A stretch of 64,000 nucleotides of DNA from an uncultured Candidatus Altimarinota bacterium. GTDB taxonomy: Bacteria; Patescibacteriota; Gracilibacteria; BD1-5; UBA6164. The stretch is from positions 62,001 through 126,000 of the forward strand of contig CALDZK010000001.1 of the NCBI GenBank assembly GCA_937944145.1, written 5' to 3'. The translations under genes and the position numbers were made by a program. Shown in pieces: positions 53,127 through 64,000 of the stretch. Numbering within the stretch: the first letter of the stretch is position 1; each line of letters opens with the position of its first letter. A model generated the notes under the pieces. The model made no database searches. It worked only from the letters and a program-made list of their open reading frames with translations, and was not told where the DNA came from.

Positions 53127-53202
53127 GCACCCGTAGCTCAGTGGAAGAGCACTAGGCCGCGGACCTAGGTTTGCGTGGGTTCGAATCCTGCCGGGTGTAC
53201 CA
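53127..53202 (+). tRNA. tRNA-Arg(GCG), with C33 in the anticodon loop
   Basis: 76 bases with encoded CCA. Acceptor GCACCCG/CGGGTGT, D-arm GCTC-AGTGGAA-GAGC, anticodon stem CTAGG/CCTAG with loop CCGCGGA, T-arm GTGGG-TTCGAAT-CCTGC. Anticodon GCG with A20 and C35 fits arginine. The base before the anticodon is C instead of the near-universal U33. Promoter-like TACATAATATA upstream, terminator after. Confidence 0.8.
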
Positions 53203-53610: not shown

Positions 53611-56600
53611 ATGCCGGATAATAATTGATTTGTACGTGAAGTTTGAAAATATTTTATGAATTTCTTAGAGACAGATTTTCATAAAACTCGTCTTCCAAAG
53701 AGAAATTCAATGAGTAAAATCTCAAAATGATTCAAGGTCTGAATAGATCTCGATAAATATATATGATTAAAGAGAGATTTTTATTCAATATTTCATAAGG
53801 GATTTGAGAAAAATACTCTTTCAATAAAAAAAGGAACATATACAAGTCCAATACCTGATTCAACTTTCAGACTTATAAACTCAAATATTAAAAAAATTGA
53901 TGAACAACGGCTTGAAAATGCGTTTGATGAAGTAGTAATGAATCTTAAGGTGATTAGAAAAACTCATTTGAAAAATTACCAACTTTATCTTGAAGAATCT
54001 CTCAATACTATCCAAGCTATCTTTACAAAAAGCTTTATTGTTCCTTTTCTTGACACTATACAGGGACCTCTTGAGACGCTTGATTTAGTTGATGATAATT
54101 GACTCTACCAAATAGAATGAGAACTTTCTACATCTCTTTTTTCACTCTTTGAGAGTATGCTCGCGACAATGCTCCAACAATACTTTGAGAGCTATGAGTA
54201 TGAACAATTAGAAAAAGTATCAAAAGATGAGAACAAGAAACAGATATATAATATAAAAAAAGTATTAATAAAGAATATCTCTTTAGACGAGCTTCAGAGT
54301 GATCTTGAGGAATTTTTCAAAAATATTTCTGTGAGTGATGCTTTTGATGATATATATATTCTTTTTAAGAATAATAAAACGCTTGATAAAACAGAGTTGT
54401 ATTTATATATGTATGAAATATCTTCATGAAGTCAGTCGTTTCCTCTTCTGTATATACCTATCAAACTCGAGGAAAAAAAGAGTAGTTTTGATCTCATTTT
54501 TGATACTAAACTCTTTGTTAATACAAAAGCCATAGATTATGTTGTACAGGAACATAATAGAAAATTATGAAGTAATGGAACATTAGCAGGAAACTTTGAA
54601 AGAATAATATATATAAATGATGATGAAAATTTTATCCAGAAGGTTTCATGGATAGTTGATTCATTGCAAAATTTCTTTAAATTTTCTAGAGGAATAGACA
54701 TCTCTACTCATATCCCTGAAAAAGTAGAGCATATGATTTCATGATTTTCAAATAAAAGTTATATCTATCTTTTTGATAAATCTGATGAGTCAGTTATAAA
54801 TGATTATGAGGAAATATTACAAGATAATGAGTGAATTCTTCCAGAATTTACAAAACTTCTTAATGACTTTATACAGTCTAACCCTGTGAACTTCGAGGAA
54901 GAAATAAGTGATGCTTGGCATGAAAAAGACATATGAGATAAACTCGTATTTGAAAGTCCGATTCCACTAAATGATGAGCAGAAACAAGTTGTAAGTGCAC
55001 TTTGAAAAAAAGATTGTAAGGTTGTCACAATTGAAGGGCCTCCTGGGACATGAAAGTCACATACCATTACGGCAATAATATGTAGGGCTTTATTAAATGC
55101 TCAATCTGTACTTGTGTTATCTGATAAAAAAGAAGCGCTTGATGTAGTAGAAGATAAAATTACTCAAACTTTAGACACTATTAGAAAGGATGATGATTTT
55201 TTAAATCCTATCTTGAGGCTTGGAAAATCGTGAAATAAATTCGGAAAAATAGTCCAGGGACAAACAATAAATAAAATAGCAGAACATTACTCAGCATATA
55301 AATATAAAAAGAAGGAACTAGATGAAGATAAGGCCACTCTTTTGGAAAGTATTCACTCTAATATAGATACAAATGTATCCCATTATGAAAATATTTCTCT
55401 TTGAGATATAAAGCTATATTTTTCATTACTTCCAAATTTTGAAGGTATTGATTTTATTTCTTCTCCTGAAGAATTAAGTGTTGATCTTGTCTGATTAAAA
55501 GAATCTATTGAAAATATAGGATTGTGAGAAGAAAACTCTGTTATTTCGTCTAAAACTTTTGCAGAACCTCATTGGAGTAGCTATGTTAAATTTCAAAGTA
55601 TATTAAGAGATTTGAAAGAGAAGAACACTCACTTTCAGGCATCATTCTCTGGTTTGGGTATATGAGATTACGAGAGAGATGTGAAACTAAATAACAAAAA
55701 AATTACTGCTATTGAACAATTTCAAAAAAGTGTTGGTATTATTAGTGATTCGTTAGATGCTAGCCATATATCAGATTATTTTGGATTAACCTCATTTAGA
55801 GATAAATCAGCTTTTGATTTACTAAATAGTCGTGTACGAGAACTATTAGAGCTTATAGAGAAAGCTCAAAAATATAATTGAAATTCGCTACAAAAATCAT
55901 GAACATATTCCCATTTTGAATTAGATTCATTTTCAGAAAAAACATTAGACTCTCTTAACCAATTGAGTTTAGATATATTATGACTCAAAAAACCACTTAT
56001 TGGCTATTTACTAAGCAAAAAGAAACTCGAATCTTTATTCAGGCAAGTAAAAGATATATTTCCGTACTTTAATGCAGAAAAATTACCTTCAGCAACAATT
56101 GATATACAGAAGATTACTGATCTTATAGGCTTTCTCTACAAAGGGTCAGCAGAAGACTTTTTAACTACATGGAACACGCTTGTTTCTTTCATAGAAGAGG
56201 GTTCAACTCTTGAGGATATAGCATCTCACACAACGAAGATTTTAGAACTCTATGAACAATATAATTTTATAGAACAATGATTTGAACCTGAAAGTGAAAT
56301 TGTAAAATGTCATTGGTTTATTGATATTACACCTCATATCTTAGAATTTGATGATATTCGTGACACGATGAAGGTTCTTGGAGATAGATATGACTACAAA
56401 GATTATGATCTTGTTTGTTATACTTGAGATGAAGCTCTTGAATGAGAATTTCATACAGCCAGTATTCTTTTTGAAAGATATGAAGATATAAAGAAAATTG
56501 AATCAATATCTCAAGATTTTCCCGAACTATGTGAAAGAATCTGACTACAGTTTGATCAAAGCAACATACTCGATGTTGATTCTAATCTTAGTAGTTATGA

Positions 56601-59004
56601 GAATCGCTTTCTCGAAGAATATCACACATTTTCAAATCTAGCTATGAAGATACGTTCTCAATTTATGACTCTTCCTGAAGATATATTTTTGGATGGTATT
56701 TCTCAAGTTCAGTCACAAACAACAGCTGAGATGGCTTATTTTTTAGATAAAAGAATTGTAGAGTATACTCGAAATCACGCAAAGGAAGTAAGTACACTTA
56801 AGTGAATAATATCAAAGAAAAAGAAATTCCCAAAGGGGCTCTTTGAAAATCTTAAAAACGCTTTCCCTTGTATACTTGCATGAATTCGTGATTATTCTGA
56901 ATATATACCTCTTGAAAAAGATCTCTTTGATCTTATTATTATCGATGAAGCTTCTCAGGTATCTATTGCGCAATCACTTCCAGCTCTTATCAGAGGAAAG
57001 AAAATTATTATTCTTTGAGATGATAAACAATTCTCGAATGTAAAATCAGATAACGCGAGTAAAATAGTAAACCAAGAATACAAGTCAAAAGTACGAAAAA
57101 CATTTATAGAGGAAAACCTAGAAGGAAAGAATGATGATTTTGGATGGCTTGAGAACGTCTGAAATTTTGATATCAAATACTCTATTCTAAAATTCTCAAA
57201 ATCTATTCAAAATTATAAGTGTCAGCTAAGAAAACATTTCAGATGATACCCTGAACATATTTCATATTCAAATAAGTATTTTTATGGTGGGACTCTTCAA
57301 TGTATGAAAATTAGGGGGAAAGCTATTGATGATATTTTAAAAATTGATGTTATCCCACATGATGGACTTATAGATGTAAGTCGTAATACAAACATGCTTG
57401 AGATAGATTTTATTATAGAGAGATTACGTTCTTTTTACGATGCATGAATAAAACAATCACTTGGTATCATTTCGCCACATAATGATCAAGTAGCATTACT
57501 CCAAGATAAGATATGAGAACTACCATTTAAAGACTACCTCTTTGAAGATTGTAAGCTAAAAATTATGACATTTGATTCATGTCAATGAGAAGAACGTGAT
57601 TATATTTTCTATTCTATGGTTGCTTCAGATCAAAAGGATAGGCTGAAATACATATTTATTAAAGATTTAGCGAGCCAGGATATAGAAGAAGATGGAGGTG
57701 TAAAGGCACAAAGACTTAATGTATGATTCTCCAGAGCAAAAGAAACCATGCATTTCGTTCTATCAAAACCTATAAGTGAATTCTCATGAGAGATTAAAAA
57801 CGCTCTTCTACATTACCAAAATGAGATTGAAGTATGAAGAAAAGTTGTACTTGAAGGAACTGATATAAATTCTCCTATGGAAAAGAAAATTCAGGAGTAT
57901 TTCTTTGATACTCAGTTTTATAAAGATAATCACTGAGATCTTGAACTTATTCCTCAATTCAACTTATGAGCATATTTAAAACAGCTTGATAGAACTTATA
58001 ATCACCCTGCTTACAAAGTTGATTTTCTTGTAATATTCAACGAGGATAAATTAGTGATTGAATATGATGGTTTTAAAGAACACTTTGGAGACCTGAGTAA
58101 TGTTACAGCAGAGAATCATGAGAGATATATGAAAGCTGATGATATATATAGGCAAAAAGTCTTAGAAGGATATGGATATCAATTTCTAAGAATAAATAAA
58201 TTTAATATTTGAGAAGACCCAGTACAAACCCTTAGTGATAGACTTGAGAATGTTTTCAAAAAAAAAAGAGTAGAAAGTAGTTCACTAGACTCACTACATG
58301 ATCAAATAGATAGACTTCAAGACTGAGATCAAAGAGCCTGTCAGAGTTGTGGTAAAATATTAGATAGTGTATATTTTCCGTACAAAACTAAATTTGAGTG
58401 CCTTACGTGTTATGAAAAAGCTAGTTGAAAGACTCTCTGGTCTAAACGTGATGATATTAAAAGATTTGAGAGAGATAAAAATGAAGATTTACAGTTAGGG
58501 GAACCTGGAGATTATTTTGATATGCAATGACTTATAGATCTTTTAGAGGATTGTGAACAAGATAGATTTTTGGAATATACTCTCAAGTACTCGAAATTTA
58601 GAGTTTATTGAGATAGTATGAAAATACTAATTAGTGAAAACAAAAAATATAATAAATTATGCATTAATGAAGATAAGATTCAAAATATGCTCAAGCAACT
58701 AGGAATAAATTCTTTGGAATTTGTAGAATATGATGAGAATAAAACAACTACTTCTAGTCCTTTATCAATTCAAGAAAAAAAGGTCGAAGATAATTTTCAG
58801 CGAGAAAATACTATAGATGAGATACTACAGTATCTAAAAAAGAGAAAAGATTCGAGGCAAGATGTGGGTATATACTACAAAAATAATCAAGAACTTAGCA
58901 CCTTTAATACGTACTATTTTGATGAAACTTATCTTCATGTAAAATATGGGAATTCACCTTACTATATTAAATATCTTATTTCGAAAATTAGAAAGGTAAT
59001 TTAA
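53611..59004 (+). CDS. Giant SF1 (Upf1-like) helicase with DUF559/Vsr-like nuclease and zinc ribbon, 1797 aa
   Basis: One frame from ATG 53611 (MPDNNGFVREVGKYFMNFLE) to TAA 59002-59004. Residues 1-450 are unassigned, with TDFHKTRLPKRN early. Walker A IEGPPGTGKSHTIT at ~476-483 (Gly from TGA), preceded by PLNDEQKQVVSAL, is Upf1/Dna2-type. Walker B IIIDEASQVSIAQSLPAL at ~1111; motif LRKHFRGYPEHIS; motif IMTFDSCQGEERDYIF; motif VI NVGFSRAKETM at ~1370. Residues ~1470-1530 (KVDFLVIF, LVIEYDGFKEHF, RQKVLEGYGYQFLRIN) look like a DUF559/Vsr-type nuclease. Residues ~1576-1604 hold Cys-x2-Cys twice. Likely anti-phage or DNA-processing; target unknown. In-frame ATG at 53656 is a possible shorter start. 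Confidence 0.75.
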
Positions 59005-59091
59005 AATATTTTTCACATTAGAATAACCGAAATAATTAGCTTATAGCAGGTTGATTTCTATATTATTTTTTATATATTCGCTTTGAATAGG

Positions 59092-59265
59092 TTACGCGAT
59101 ACTAAAATCCTTGTTTTCAAGTTTATAGTTAATATTTTGGATATCTGTTTCTGATGGGAGCTTTTTTGATAGGTTTATAATTCTTTGCATTTTTTTAGTT
59201 AGGTATACCATTTCGATATGAGTACTTCATAGTTGATTTCAATTTTTCGATCTCTTCTCATACAT
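59092..59265 (-). CDS. Short overlapping ORF in the +1 frame of the HamA-like gene, 57 aa
   Basis: ATG 59265 gives MYEKRSKNGNQLGSTHIEMVYLTKK... ending ENKDFSIA-TAA at 59092-59094. It overlaps the last 71 bases of the HamA-like ORF. Its sequence reads as coherent protein, so it is more likely the true HamA C-terminus displaced by a frameshift at the T5/A5 run 59243-59247 than an independent gene. Confidence 0.35.
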
Positions 59266-59839
59266 TTCAAGTGATAAAGTCTAGATATCTAAATCTTTTG
59301 CTATCATTTCAGTCTTTATCTCTTTGAATACCATTTTTAAAATCATGAATAGATTGAAGAGCCTTAGCTATTCATGTCTTGATGGATTTAACAGTCTTTG
59401 ATTCTCAAAATATGATTAAGTAATCATCTCATATTTTCTTAAAGTGAACACCATCAGCTCACTTAACATAATCATTTGCCGAAGTTTTTAATTCCAGTTT
59501 ACTGATAATTTTAGGAGCATCCAGATCACTCTCAAGTAGGCAATATAAAAGAATTTCTCACAACTCTCCAGTATTTGATAAATAGTCTCTAAAGCTATTT
59601 CGTGCTTCCTTAGATATTTTCATAGTCTTTCCTCAATTTTCTTTAATTTTTTGCCTTGAAATAGCAAATGATAAAACAGGTTCTAATAAAGCTTCCTTTA
59701 GGCTAAGGTAATCAAAATCTTTTGAATCTATTTGCAACATAAAAAGTTTCAATTGTTTTTCTCAATATTTATCTAAAGAAAATGAGTCAATTTCAGAAAA
59801 GATCGAGAGAAAATCATCACAGTTAATTGTTTTATCCAC
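59195..59839 (-). CDS. HamA-like DUF1837 nuclease (Hachiman-type), 214 aa
   Basis: GTG 59839 (an in-frame TAA precedes it) to TAA 59195-59197. Residues ~91-165 read GELGEILLYCLLESDLDAPK, SKLELKTSANDYVKGADGVHF and DDYLIIFGESKTVKSIKTGIAKALQSIHDF, the DUF1837 core of HamA. Candidate PD-(D/E)xK residues are D129, E146 and K148; the flanking glycines are TGA codons. HamA is the nuclease of the Hachiman defence system. No HamB-like SF2 helicase adjoins it; instead the giant SF1 helicase ends 190 bases away in convergent orientation. The C-terminus may be frameshifted. Confidence 0.7.
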
Positions 59840-59942: not shown

Positions 59943-59977
59943 AAAAGCCCCCGAGTTTCCTCGGAGGCTTTCTTTTT
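59943..59977. terminator. G+C-rich terminator downstream of the DapD-like gene
   Basis: AAGCCCCCGAG-TTTC-CTCGGAGGCTT stem with T tracts on both sides. Its G+C-rich stem is unlike the AT-rich terminators elsewhere in the window. Confidence 0.75.
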
Positions 59978-60026
59978 ATTGACTATCTCTGTCATCCTCC
60001 CTTTTAGTGAGAGGTCGGAGAGTTTG

Positions 60027-61103
60027 TCAGTTATTTACATTCAAGTCATCGTTTCGTTCGAAACGAGCTTGATTCTCCTCAGAATTGAAATTGAGGAGAT
60101 ATTCACCAGGATAGACATGAATATTGCCGATACGACGTTTCGACCGATTCACGGTGACCATCGTTTCATTCTCTCCTTGGATTCCTCCATCATATCCGGC
60201 TTTGACATACTTCCCATACGTCGGTGATCCCTTCCTGAGATCTTTCAAGGGGGTCCCTAAAGAGATATCAACTCCTGAACCCCAGAAGTTCCGATCGCCG
60301 ATGACGAGACCAGTGCCAACGCGTGCACGAGTCCCAAAGAAGTTATCATCGCCGATAACAACTGGACGAGCATTGACTGGGGAAAGAACCCCTTCCATCG
60401 AAACAAAGGATCCAATCTTGTTTCGGTCTCCCATCTGAACACAGCTCGCTATGGAGCAGTGACCATCGAGGAGGTTGTCATCGCCGATAGAAACACCGAA
60501 GTTCACAGCTGCTCCCATCATGAGGGTATTGCCTGAACCGAAGCATGCACCGTATCGTGCGAACGATGTTGGAGCGAAACGATTGGTACCAGGATCATTG
60601 AACATGAGCCACGACGGGAACTTGTCATGAGCCTCACGATAATCCTCTGGAATTCCTCCGATTGACATCCAAACGGTCGGTAGACCGGCGAAGACTTTCG
60701 TCAGAGGATTCCGATGCTCCGGATTGAGAGCATTGAATACACCAGCCGAGAAGAGTTCCATGATGAGATAGGACTCTTCAAGGCAAGTCGGTGGTTCGTT
60801 GGTTTCCATGACGCAGATAACAGCGTTTTTACGCTTCTTCTTTTTGAGCTTCATGCCTTCTTCGCAGAAGGCAGCAGCGCCTGAATGTTTCGTTTCGATG
60901 AAAACCTGATGAAGTTCATCAAGGTCAACACCCTTCATGTCGATGACGGTATTCCCATCGTCGTATTCGAAACGTTCCCGTAGGATACGAAGAAAGTCTT
61001 GCACAGGACCGTCGTTACTGTCGGTGTGCGCGAATGCTTTCACATACCAGACAGTTGGACCTTCTTTAATGCCAAGGCCAATGGCAAAGACTCTGGAAGT
61101 CAT
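60027..61103 (-). CDS. dapD: DapD-like acyltransferase (tetrahydrodipicolinate N-succinyltransferase-like), standard-code gene
   Basis: Reads uninterrupted for 358 codons with the standard code from ATG 61103 to TGA 60027-60029; all other long genes here are split by TGA. If UGA is Gly the frame would extend to TAA at 59976. Residues ~190-330 are a left-handed beta-helix (hexapeptide turns such as IGDDNLLDGHCSI, IGSFVSMEGVLSPVNARPVVIGDDNFFGTRA, VIGDRNFWGSGVDIS), matching DapD. G+C content is visibly higher and glycine uses GGx only. A Shine-Dalgarno site (GAGGA) lies seven bases before the ATG, rare in this window. DapD acts in lysine/diaminopimelate synthesis. Confidence 0.7.
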   Translation of the reverse strand: MTSRVFAIGLGIKEGPTVWYVKAFAHTDSNDGPVQDFLRILRERFEYDDGNTVIDMKGVDLDELHQVFIETKHSGAAAFCEEGMKLKKKKRKNAVICVMETNEPPTCLEESYLIMELFSAGVFNALNPEHRNPLTKVFAGLPTVWMSIGGIPEDYREAHDKFPSWLMFNDPGTNRFAPTSFARYGACFGSGNTLMMGAAVNFGVSIGDDNLLDGHCSIASCVQMGDRNKIGSFVSMEGVLSPVNARPVVIGDDNFFGTRARVGTGLVIGDRNFWGSGVDISLGTPLKDLRKGSPTYGKYVKAGYDGGIQGENETMVTVNRSKRRIGNIHVYPGEYLLNFNSEENQARFERNDDLNVNN

Positions 61104-61148: not shown

Positions 61149-61176
61149 TTTATATATATTTAAATAAATATGTCAA
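61149..61176 (-). promoter_or_regulatory. Candidate promoter of the DapD-like gene
   Basis: Minus strand TTGACA (61176-61171), 16-base spacer, TATAAA (61154-61149), 45 bases before the ATG. Confidence 0.55.
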
Positions 61177-61441: not shown

Positions 61442-62872
61442 TTAATTTTTTTGTAAGATTTTATTTAATTCTAATAGATTTTCTGTAATAATTTTCTCAT
61501 TCTCTTGTAAAGACTTCATAATCTCGTCAGGGCTTCTGAGTACTTCTTCTTCACCCTTATACGGATTTTTTGCCGATATGTCATAGTCTTTTATATCTTC
61601 TACATTCACTATCCAAGAATTATCTCCTAACTCTCTCTTTTTTAGAAGTTCAGGAATCTGTTGTATCTCTGAATACAGCAGGGGTTTATTTTTTGTAAGT
61701 TTTCTTTCTAAGTTTATTTCATAATACCAGATATCTTTTGTACTTCATGTCCTATCAAAAAATATAACATTTGTTTTTACTCCTGAATACGGGAGAAATA
61801 CTCCAGCTGGAAGACTCACAATACTATGCAAGTTATAATCTTCGAGTATATTTTTCTTTACTTCCTGAAATGCTTTTCCAGTATTAAACAGCACTCCTTC
61901 TGGCACTACAATCGCTGTTTTTCATCCTAGTTTGAGATGTTTATAGATATGCTGTAAAAATAGCATTTCCGTAGCATTTGTTTTGATTGGGAAATTTTGC
62001 TGAATTATTTCTTTTTCTTTTCCACCAAACGGAGGATTTGCAAGTATGACATCGAATCTATCTTTTTCCTGTATTTGTCTGATATCAGTTGTAAGGGTAT
62101 TGGTTTTTACAATATTTGGATTACTAATACCGTGCAAGATCATATTCATAACTCCCATAATATAGGCTAGACCTGTTTTTTCATTTCCGTGAAATGTATC
62201 ATTTACCAAGAAATCTAGCTCTTTTTCAGTCTTATCTTGTTTCATCATATAATCATACGCTTGTATCAAAAAACCTCCACTTCCAACAGATGGATCATAT
62301 ACGGTTTGCCCTACTTTCGGATCAATAGCCTCAACCATCATTTTGATAATAGATCTTGGAGTATAGAACTCCCCACTATTTCCTCAGTCAGATCCCATAC
62401 CTCGCAAGAGATCTTCATATACTTGTGAAAGCTCAAACAGATCCTCAGATTTTTGAAAACTCAGATCATCGATAATATCAAGTATCTCTCTAAGTGTATG
62501 CCCAGAATCGATTTTGTTATCTATAAAATGAAATATCTCCCCAATCTTATATCTCAAGGTATGATAGTCCTCATTCACTCCTCTGAGTGATTTAAAATAC
62601 GGAAACAATTCATGATTCACAAAGTCTTTCAGATCATCACCTGATGTATCTTTATTATCTCCATGAGCCCAATGACTCCATCTATACTTTTTTTCAACCG
62701 TATAGTTATACTCACGTCCATCCAGCAAAGCATTATCTGCTTCTCTACGTTCAAAGTCATCTAAAAACTTCAAAAAGAGTATCCAGCTGATTTGTTCTGT
62801 ATAGTGCATAGCTCCAGAGATTCCATCGTCTCTCCTGAGTATATCTGTGATTCTATTTATTTGTTGTTTCAT
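61442..62872 (-). CDS. hsdM: Type I restriction-modification methyltransferase subunit HsdM
   Basis: 476 residues. MKQQINRITDILRRDDGISGAMHYTEQISWILFLKFLDD is the HsdM N-terminal domain; YDPSVGSGGFLIQAYDY is the SAM-binding motif I, and LANPPFGGKE the NPPF catalytic motif for N6-adenine methylation. Downstream glycines include TGA codons. HsdM methylates recognition sites and is required for restriction with HsdS. hsdR is not in the window. 22 bases separate it from hsdS. Confidence 0.95.
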
Positions 62873-62894: not shown

Positions 62895-64000
62895 TTAATC
62901 CTTCACCAATCTCCCCTCAAATGCCTCCTTTAGCAAACTCTGTTTCATCTCCTTCAGTCCGTCTATCTTCTCTTTATATAACTCTCTCAACTCTTTATTC
63001 TTCTCAAAGACTCTATCCAAATACTCCACGATTTCTTTTTGTTTTTCGAGTGGTGGGAAATAAGTGTGATATTCATCTAGAATAGTTTTATTTACTCAAG
63101 ATTGTCATGCTGCTCTTTGTGATTTAGAGATAATGTAGTTTTGAATAATAGGGTTTTGTAAAAACCAATATAAATAATCGCTAAAAATTTCATTATCATC
63201 AAATACTGATTTCATTAAAGCAACATTATACGCTCATTCGATTCATCTTAAAATTTGAAAAATAGGTGGTCAATATCTTCACACCATAATATCGCATTTT
63301 CCACAAAATTTCTTGGTTGATTTTTCGTCGACATAAACTAAAAATTTATCTGTTTTGTAATCTCTTATCTGAATTAATCGAACATAACCATCTTTTTTCT
63401 CATAAATAAATGTACTCTTAGGTGGTTGTGATCATCAAATAAATTTTACATAATCTGATAACCTTTCCTTTACTCATATTCATTGAAATGAAGAAAACAC
63501 TTGCTCCAACACACTCTTCTCCATCTCCTCAATCTCCTTCAAACTCTTCTCAGCAAGATCTATACTTGCATCAATCTTTTCAAAAGCACTATCAAGTTTT
63601 TGTACGATTGCTTTTTGGGTTGGGAGAGGTGGGAGTGGGATTTTTTGGTCATAAACATGATTTCTATTTATTCATGGTTTAACTCATTGAGCTAGGCTTG
63701 GTAAATTTAAAAATACAAGAGCATTGAAAATATAATCTAAATCTGCTTTTCATGAAGTAGTAACAAAATATGTGACATCTGATGCCCAAAATTTTCAGCT
63801 TACTCGAGTTAATGCTCATGCACTTCATTTTCTTCAAATAATTATACTTTCTCACTCAAACAAAAATTTATCTGAATTATACATAACTCCATTTGCTCAA
63901 TAGACTTGATATAATCAATTTTTATTTTTATCTTCTTTTAAAACTCACTTTCAGTAATTTAATACAATTATTTCTCAAAGTCTTTTTAGTGGGTATGGCA
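62895..64000 (-). CDS. hsdS: Type I restriction-modification specificity subunit HsdS (partial)
   Basis: The gene enters from the right edge and ends at TAA 62895-62897. Visible residues: a target-recognition domain (ESIIIGRKGSAGALTRVSGKFWASDVTYFV, GVKPGINRNHVYDQKIPLPPLPTQKAIVQKLD), a coiled-coil spacer, and a second TRD/spacer ending PPLEKQKEIVEYLDRVFEKNKELRELYKEKIDGLKEM. HsdS decides the DNA sequence recognised by the HsdMS/HsdMRS complex. Many Gly are TGA. Confidence 0.92.

What the first reader, a model, noticed from the sequence alone, without database searches (positions are those of the whole stretch)
60027..61103. A standard-code, G+C-richer DapD-like gene inside a UGA=Gly genome
The 358-codon frame has no internal TGA, ends in TGA, carries a clear Shine-Dalgarno site and a G+C-rich terminator, unlike its neighbours. 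In this cell its stop should be read as Gly and add 17 residues (GQTLRPLTKREDDRDSQ) before TAA. It is either a very recent transfer, a gene whose TGA tail has not yet been repaired, or a misassembled contaminant. If real, it shows how standard-code genes survive in a recoded host.
Basis: partly seen in the sequence, partly recalled or inferred. Interest (0 to 1): 0.8.

Follow-up and report, generated by a model that had tools for sequence, protein, structure and literature searches.

The report
Foreign standard-code gene in recoded bacterium
A bacterium that reads the stop codon UGA as glycine carries a DapD-like enzyme gene captured from an ordinary-code organism; at least eight relatives carry UGA-free genes of the same general kind, and one unrelated copy shares the same RNA tail beginning at that UGA, so codes need not block gene transfer.

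Summary
Window 60027-61103(-) is a 358-codon DapD-like gene with no internal TGA and 48.5% G+C (host genes 36%). It has the highest G+C of 614 sampled genes, strongly atypical codon usage, a Shine-Dalgarno site (only 10 of 534 host genes have one), a TGA stop, and TAA 17 residues later. The host is recoded: no RF2, and an RF1 gene that itself contains TGA=Gly.

It is not a one-off. Nine genomes of the order carry orphan dapD-type genes of several unrelated types. All have zero TGA among 354 Gly codons and an SD-like site; none of the nine genomes has dapB. The closest copy (62% identity) ends in TAA; three copies have TGA at the homologous stop.

It opens a folded 3' element plus terminator that is 84% identical to the one behind a dapD in another genus, although the coding DNA is only 47% identical. 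That element occurs once in each of these two genomes and in none of the other 75 of the order.

Best reading: repeatedly captured standard-code expression units, tolerated because readthrough adds only a short tail. The element's role is open. No read data were available.

The parts
60027..61103 (-). dapD-like ORF, 358 codons, ATG to TGA; no internal TGA
   Evidence: G+C 0.485, codon usage outlier
59976..60029 (-). readthrough tail in the recoded host: TGA(Gly) plus 16 residues, then TAA
   Evidence: no RF2 in the genome
61111..61115 (-). Shine-Dalgarno site GAGGA, 7 nt before the ATG
   Evidence: sequence; rare in this genome, 10 of 534 genes
61149..61176 (-). promoter-like TTGACA (61171-61176) with TATAAA (61149-61154), 16-nt spacer
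   Evidence: read from the sequence; not tested, and not listed by the consensus scan
59943..60029 (-). 3' element beginning with the TGA: hairpin domain plus terminator; 84% identical to the element behind dapD of G012
59980..60029 (-). first domain of the 3' element: UGAC...GUCA and CUCU...AGAG stems around a hairpin
   Evidence: fold of the 87-nt element, z -6.8
59943..59972 (-). intrinsic terminator: 13-bp G+C-rich stem ending in a T run
53611..59004 (+). neighbour: 1797-aa helicase/nuclease-like protein, 44 in-frame TGA, Mokosh-like PADLOC hits
59195..59839 (-). neighbour: DUF1837/HamA-like protein, 10 in-frame TGA
61442..62872 (-). neighbour: type I methyltransferase HsdM, 3 in-frame TGA
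62895..63998 (-). neighbour: type I specificity subunit HsdS, 23 in-frame TGA; runs off the window
   Evidence: 62898-63884 scanned

Best explanation
The gene was acquired horizontally from a standard-code, Shine-Dalgarno-using bacterium as a unit (SD, ORF, 3' hairpin and terminator) and sits between defence genes. In the recoded host the TGA is read as glycine because there is no RF2 (inferred); translation ends at TAA 17 residues later, just before the terminator, so the product is a DapD-like protein with a short tail (inferred). Related units were captured several times independently in this order (supported by unrelated protein types). They work because a standard-code ORF contains no internal TGA and a second stop lies nearby. 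The 3' element that starts at the TGA is shared between unrelated dapD genes (shown) and is either a cassette end or a conserved 3' regulator (open). The enzyme is an orphan left-handed beta-helix acyltransferase that probably acylates something other than a lysine-pathway intermediate (inferred from the missing dapB and changed active-site residues).
For: Foreign G+C and codon usage, e.g. GGC 26% vs 2% of Gly, AGA 5% vs 55% of Arg. SD present where host genes lack it. RF1 only, with 5 in-frame TGA, no RF2; the same in 10 of 11 order genomes tested. Nine order genomes have dapD-type genes with 0 TGA of 354 Gly codons (7-55% TGA in ribosomal-protein operons, 11-79% in bulk). The types are mostly 16-48% identical outside three closer pairs, and several are as near or nearer to proteins of standard-code bacteria (G012 61% to a Nocardia fragment), so several captures. 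TGA at the homologous stop in G000, G012 and G026; TAA in the closest homologue G022. 3' element 68/81 identical to G012 versus 46.6% for coding DNA; once each in G000 and G012, none in the 75 other genomes at comparable score. No dapB above the cut-off in any of the nine.
Against: No donor found: no close relative among 84,980 species by exact-peptide seeding, nor in viral contigs, plasmids or phages. G018 dapD has host-like codon usage yet no TGA, so recent transfer does not explain every family member. Some highly expressed native genes also avoid TGA. tRNA-Gly(UCA) was not detected in this bin, but neither were Val and Asn tRNAs. No reads or proteome.
Confidence: 0.62

Rival explanations
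1. A single, very recent transfer whose TGA stop simply has not yet been repaired; the resemblance to other genomes is incidental.
For: Strongly foreign composition; TGA exactly at the homologous stop, TAA in the 62% homologue.
Against: TGA-free dapD-type genes in nine genomes; 3' element including the TGA conserved between two genera behind very different coding regions.
Confidence: 0.15
2. TGA avoidance through very high expression: the gene is native or long domesticated and shaped by translational selection.
For: Probable highly expressed genes of G000 (L1, EF-Tu, S1, surface proteins) also have 0-1 TGA; SD sites associate with TGA-poor genes, odds ratio 8.6, p 1.4e-8; three related dapD genes have boxA-like boxes and rRNA-like leaders.
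Against: The G000 gene matches neither bulk nor TGA-poor codon usage; GC3 0.49, above most TGA-poor native genes (about 0.2-0.36); ribosomal-protein operons use 23-55% TGA in eight of the nine genomes.
Confidence: 0.13
3. Dual-code shuttle cassette: the unit is kept TGA-free and SD-led because it moves, on phage or plasmid, between standard-code and recoded hosts.
For: Code-11-compatible phages of Gracilibacteria with TGA-free genes and nearby backup stops are reported (PMC10746230); shared 3' element behind very different genes; location between defence genes.
Against: No phage or plasmid copy found; no attachment site or convincing terminal repeat found at this locus.
Confidence: 0.2
4. Assembly or binning artefact (contaminant sequence joined in).
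For: Abrupt G+C change at both gene edges; no read data.
Against: Mid-contig position, host-like AT-rich flanks, same phenomenon in independent genomes.
Confidence: 0.04

Closest known systems
DapD, tetrahydrodipicolinate N-succinyltransferase (DapD_gpp TIGR03536, PRK11830/NF008808)
   Same: hexapeptide-repeat domain and similarity over residues 158-298; whole protein aligns with the DapD_gpp-type proteins of G018 and G012 at about 30%
   Different: far below the curated cut-offs (88 vs 204 and 78 vs 518 bits); P. aeruginosa Glu221 and Arg223 align with Asp213 and His215; no dapB in the genome
Code-11-compatible phages of Gracilibacteria/Absconditabacteria (PMC10746230)
   Same: no in-frame TGA; where TGA is the stop, another stop follows closely
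   Different: a chromosomal metabolic-type gene, not a phage gene; carries a conserved 3' element starting at the TGA
Horizontal gene transfer into Patescibacteria (PMC12455944)
   Same: metabolic genes gained from distant bacteria
   Different: the recipient here uses another genetic code; that paper does not mention the genetic code

Membership tests
UGA=Gly genome (NCBI code 25, Gracilibacteria/Absconditabacteria) | RF2 absent, RF1 present | tested here: met
   one class-I release factor, PxT motif, best matches to RF1 in the PDB
UGA=Gly genome (NCBI code 25, Gracilibacteria/Absconditabacteria) | TGA at conserved glycines | tested here: met
   three of the five TGA codons of RF1 align with Gly of Thermus RF1; 4411 of 16123 codons read as Gly are TGA
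UGA=Gly genome (NCBI code 25, Gracilibacteria/Absconditabacteria) | tRNA-Gly with UCA anticodon | tested here: inconclusive
   not among the tRNAs found; Val and Asn tRNAs also missing
DapD | left-handed beta-helix hexapeptide repeats | tested here: met
   Pfam PF00132 E 2.9e-9; PDB DapD chains, best E 4.6e-17
DapD | score above a DapD equivalog cut-off | tested here: not met
DapD | succinyl/amino-donor contact residues (P. aeruginosa Glu221, Arg223, Ser241, Asn209) | tested here: not met
   alignment: Glu221 to Asp213, Arg223 to His215; Ser235 and Asn201 kept; positions mapped through G018 (residues from PMC3281039)
DapD | lysine pathway present (dapB) | tested here: not met
   no dapB above the cut-off in any of 9 genomes
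Code-11-compatible gene in a code-25 host | no in-frame TGA, backup stop close to a TGA stop | tested here: met
Code-11-compatible gene in a code-25 host | carried by a phage | tested here: inconclusive
   no viral copy found, but those searches used short exact seeds

The most novel reading that the evidence does not exclude
A gene cassette that functions in two genetic codes: SD-led, TGA-free ORFs of interchangeable dapD-type genes followed by a conserved structured 3' module whose first codon is the code-ambiguous UGA, so that standard-code cells terminate and form the hairpin while recoded cells read through it. The module would be either a recombination end or a code-dependent regulator.
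Probability: 0.2. Interest if true: 0.85.

Novelty: new variant of a known kind. Interest (0 to 1): 0.62.

Why it matters
Changed codes are thought to wall a lineage off from foreign genes. Here standard-code genes appear to enter a UGA=Gly lineage repeatedly, and a simple signature marks them: no in-frame TGA, Shine-Dalgarno site, foreign codon usage, backup stop. That makes the permeability of a code barrier measurable from genomes alone, and the shared 3' element offers a handle on how the genes travel or are controlled.

Tried and rejected
Donor search in genome contigs, IMG/VR, plasmids and phages gave only distant DapDs. The phylum and class samples held no close relative outside the order. 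Integration at tRNA-Arg 53127-53202: no repeat of the tRNA end on the contig. No direct or inverted repeat frames this gene beyond AT-rich noise. No Rfam family at the 3' element. Viral matches to the loop motif lack the stem-loop context and look like chance. Weak model hits in other genomes are only terminators. AlphaFold without an alignment failed, pLDDT 32, so no fold search was made. The early impression that no other gene is TGA-free was corrected with the larger sample. An integron attC was considered from the sequence, but RYYYAAC/GTTRRRY ends were not seen; not tested systematically.

Full report
What is there. The 358-codon frame at 60027-61103(-) is real. It has no internal TGA, ends in TGA, and under TGA=Gly would run 17 residues further to TAA at 59976. 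It encodes a hexapeptide-repeat protein related to DapD. The window lies in the middle of contig C1 (204 kb) of a 1.18-Mb genome, 98% complete.

The host is recoded. A search with the RF2 model finds one release factor, RF1, with five in-frame TGA, three of them aligned with glycines of a solved RF1 structure; RF2 is missing. Ten of eleven further genomes of the order show the same. The exception, G016, is a 2.7-Mb, 500-contig bin with an extra TGA-free RF2 gene, probably contamination. tRNA-Gly(UCA) was not found, but Val and Asn tRNAs were missed as well, so this is inconclusive.

The gene is foreign. Over 838 kb (71%) of the genome it has the highest G+C of 614 genes, 0.482 with its tail, against a mean of 0.363 and sd 0.034. 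By synonymous codons without glycine it ranked most atypical of 259 genes in the first sample; in the larger sample it was second only to an ORF whose 12 glycines are all TGA, likely spurious. It uses GGC for 26% of Gly (host 2%) and AGA for 5% of Arg (host 55%). It has an SD motif that only 10 of 534 host genes have, fewer than in control positions. The neighbours are recoded: 44, 10, 3 and 23 TGA in the helicase-like, HamA-like, HsdM and HsdS genes.

It is one of many. dapD-type genes occur in nine genomes of the order. None of their 354 glycine codons is TGA, while ribosomal-protein operons use TGA at 7-55% and other genes at 11-79% of glycines. All nine have an SD-like motif of 5-8 nt that can pair with the 16S tail seen in relatives. 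The proteins fall into several types: G000 with G022 (62%), G018 with G012 (65%), G016 with G020 (57%), G026, G450, and an E. coli-type in G439. Some are about as near to standard-code bacteria as to their closest partner in the order. This points to several captures, although a deep tree with seven unresolved forks cannot count them. Three genes (G000, G012, G026) have TGA at the homologous stop, and the closest homologue, G022, has TAA there. G026 has high G+C and few TGA codons, so its recoding rests mainly on the missing RF2 and single TGA codons in RF1 and an alaS-like gene (named from its sequence).

The 3' element. The 87 bases that start with the TGA fold into a hairpin domain, in which UGAC pairs with GUCA, followed by a strong terminator (z -6.8). 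The same element follows dapD in G012: 68 of 81 aligned bases agree, against 46.6% of the coding bases. No shuffle of 1000 reached the alignment score. A covariance model finds it once in G000 and once in G012; the hits in four other genomes are more than 60 bits weaker and are only terminators. G439 has a partial relative with the same CAAACTC and TCACTAAAAGG motifs. A non-coding segment conserved better than its gene means that the TGA may be part of a functional or mobile module rather than a leftover.

How it most likely works. Standard-code ORFs contain no internal TGA and are therefore readable in this host. Their TGA stop is read as glycine, and translation ends at the next TAA or TAG: after 17 residues here, 11 in G012, and 66 in G026. 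In P. aeruginosa DapD the last 15 residues are resolved only with CoA bound (PMC3281039), so a flexible C-terminus that tolerates a tail is plausible; this is inference. The enzyme is an orphan: no dapB above the family cut-off in any of the nine genomes, and two succinate-contact residues are changed. It probably acylates another substrate.

Rivals. High expression can remove TGA: native L1, EF-Tu, S1 and surface proteins have 0-1 TGA (names read from their sequences), and SD sites go with TGA-poor genes (odds ratio 8.6; the dapD genes themselves are part of that count). This may explain G018, whose dapD has host-like codons, but not the foreign codon usage here. A cassette that shuttles between codes is possible and resembles the code-11-compatible phages described for these hosts (PMC10746230), but no mobile copy was found. 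An artefact is unlikely but untested by reads.

Limits. ORF sets are mechanical and include spurious frames. The 16S tail of G000 itself is not in the bin. Donor searches used short exact seeds.

Noticed in passing
L038 9730-11262 (G016), L041 780-2163 (G450), L039 9733-11560 (G020): dapD genes lie in rRNA-operon-like units: TTGAC..TATAAAAT promoter, boxA-like GTTCNTTNAAA 103-196 nt upstream of the start (only one other hit among the native ORFs of eight genomes), and inverted-repeat arms enclosing the gene; G016 and G450 leaders are homologous although the proteins are only about 31-36% identical.
   Followed up: partly
L176, L177, L178 (16S of G012, G018, G020): 16S 3' tail reads GGACTATCTCCTTA instead of the usual GGATCACCTCCTTA, so the anti-Shine-Dalgarno is altered; few native genes have SD sites.
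   Followed up: partly
L106 7107-10895 and 12065-13219, L105 15833-17134 (G018): Scattered TGA-free genes with SD-like sites for purine synthesis: PurL-type 0 of 112, AIR-synthetase-type 0 of 37, SAICAR synthetase/AIR carboxylase fusion 0 of 21 Gly as TGA; possible further standard-code captures.
   Followed up: partly
L135 10067-13828 (G000 C4): Cluster of TGA-poor genes, several with SD-like sites and one with G+C 0.45; the three scanned have no Pfam hit; possibly another foreign or highly expressed block.
   Followed up: no
window 53611-59839: Convergent Mokosh-like 1797-aa helicase/nuclease and a HamA (DUF1837) gene without an obvious HamB; next to a type I restriction-modification system.
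   Followed up: no
L043 (G016 C153): A standard RF2 gene without TGA in a recoded bin of 2.7 Mb and 500 contigs; probably contamination.
   Followed up: no
L040 14745-18132 (G026): Low-G+C block (0.33-0.41) with many in-frame TGA in a contig of 0.50 G+C, including a methyltransferase-like gene 3 kb from dapD.
   Followed up: no
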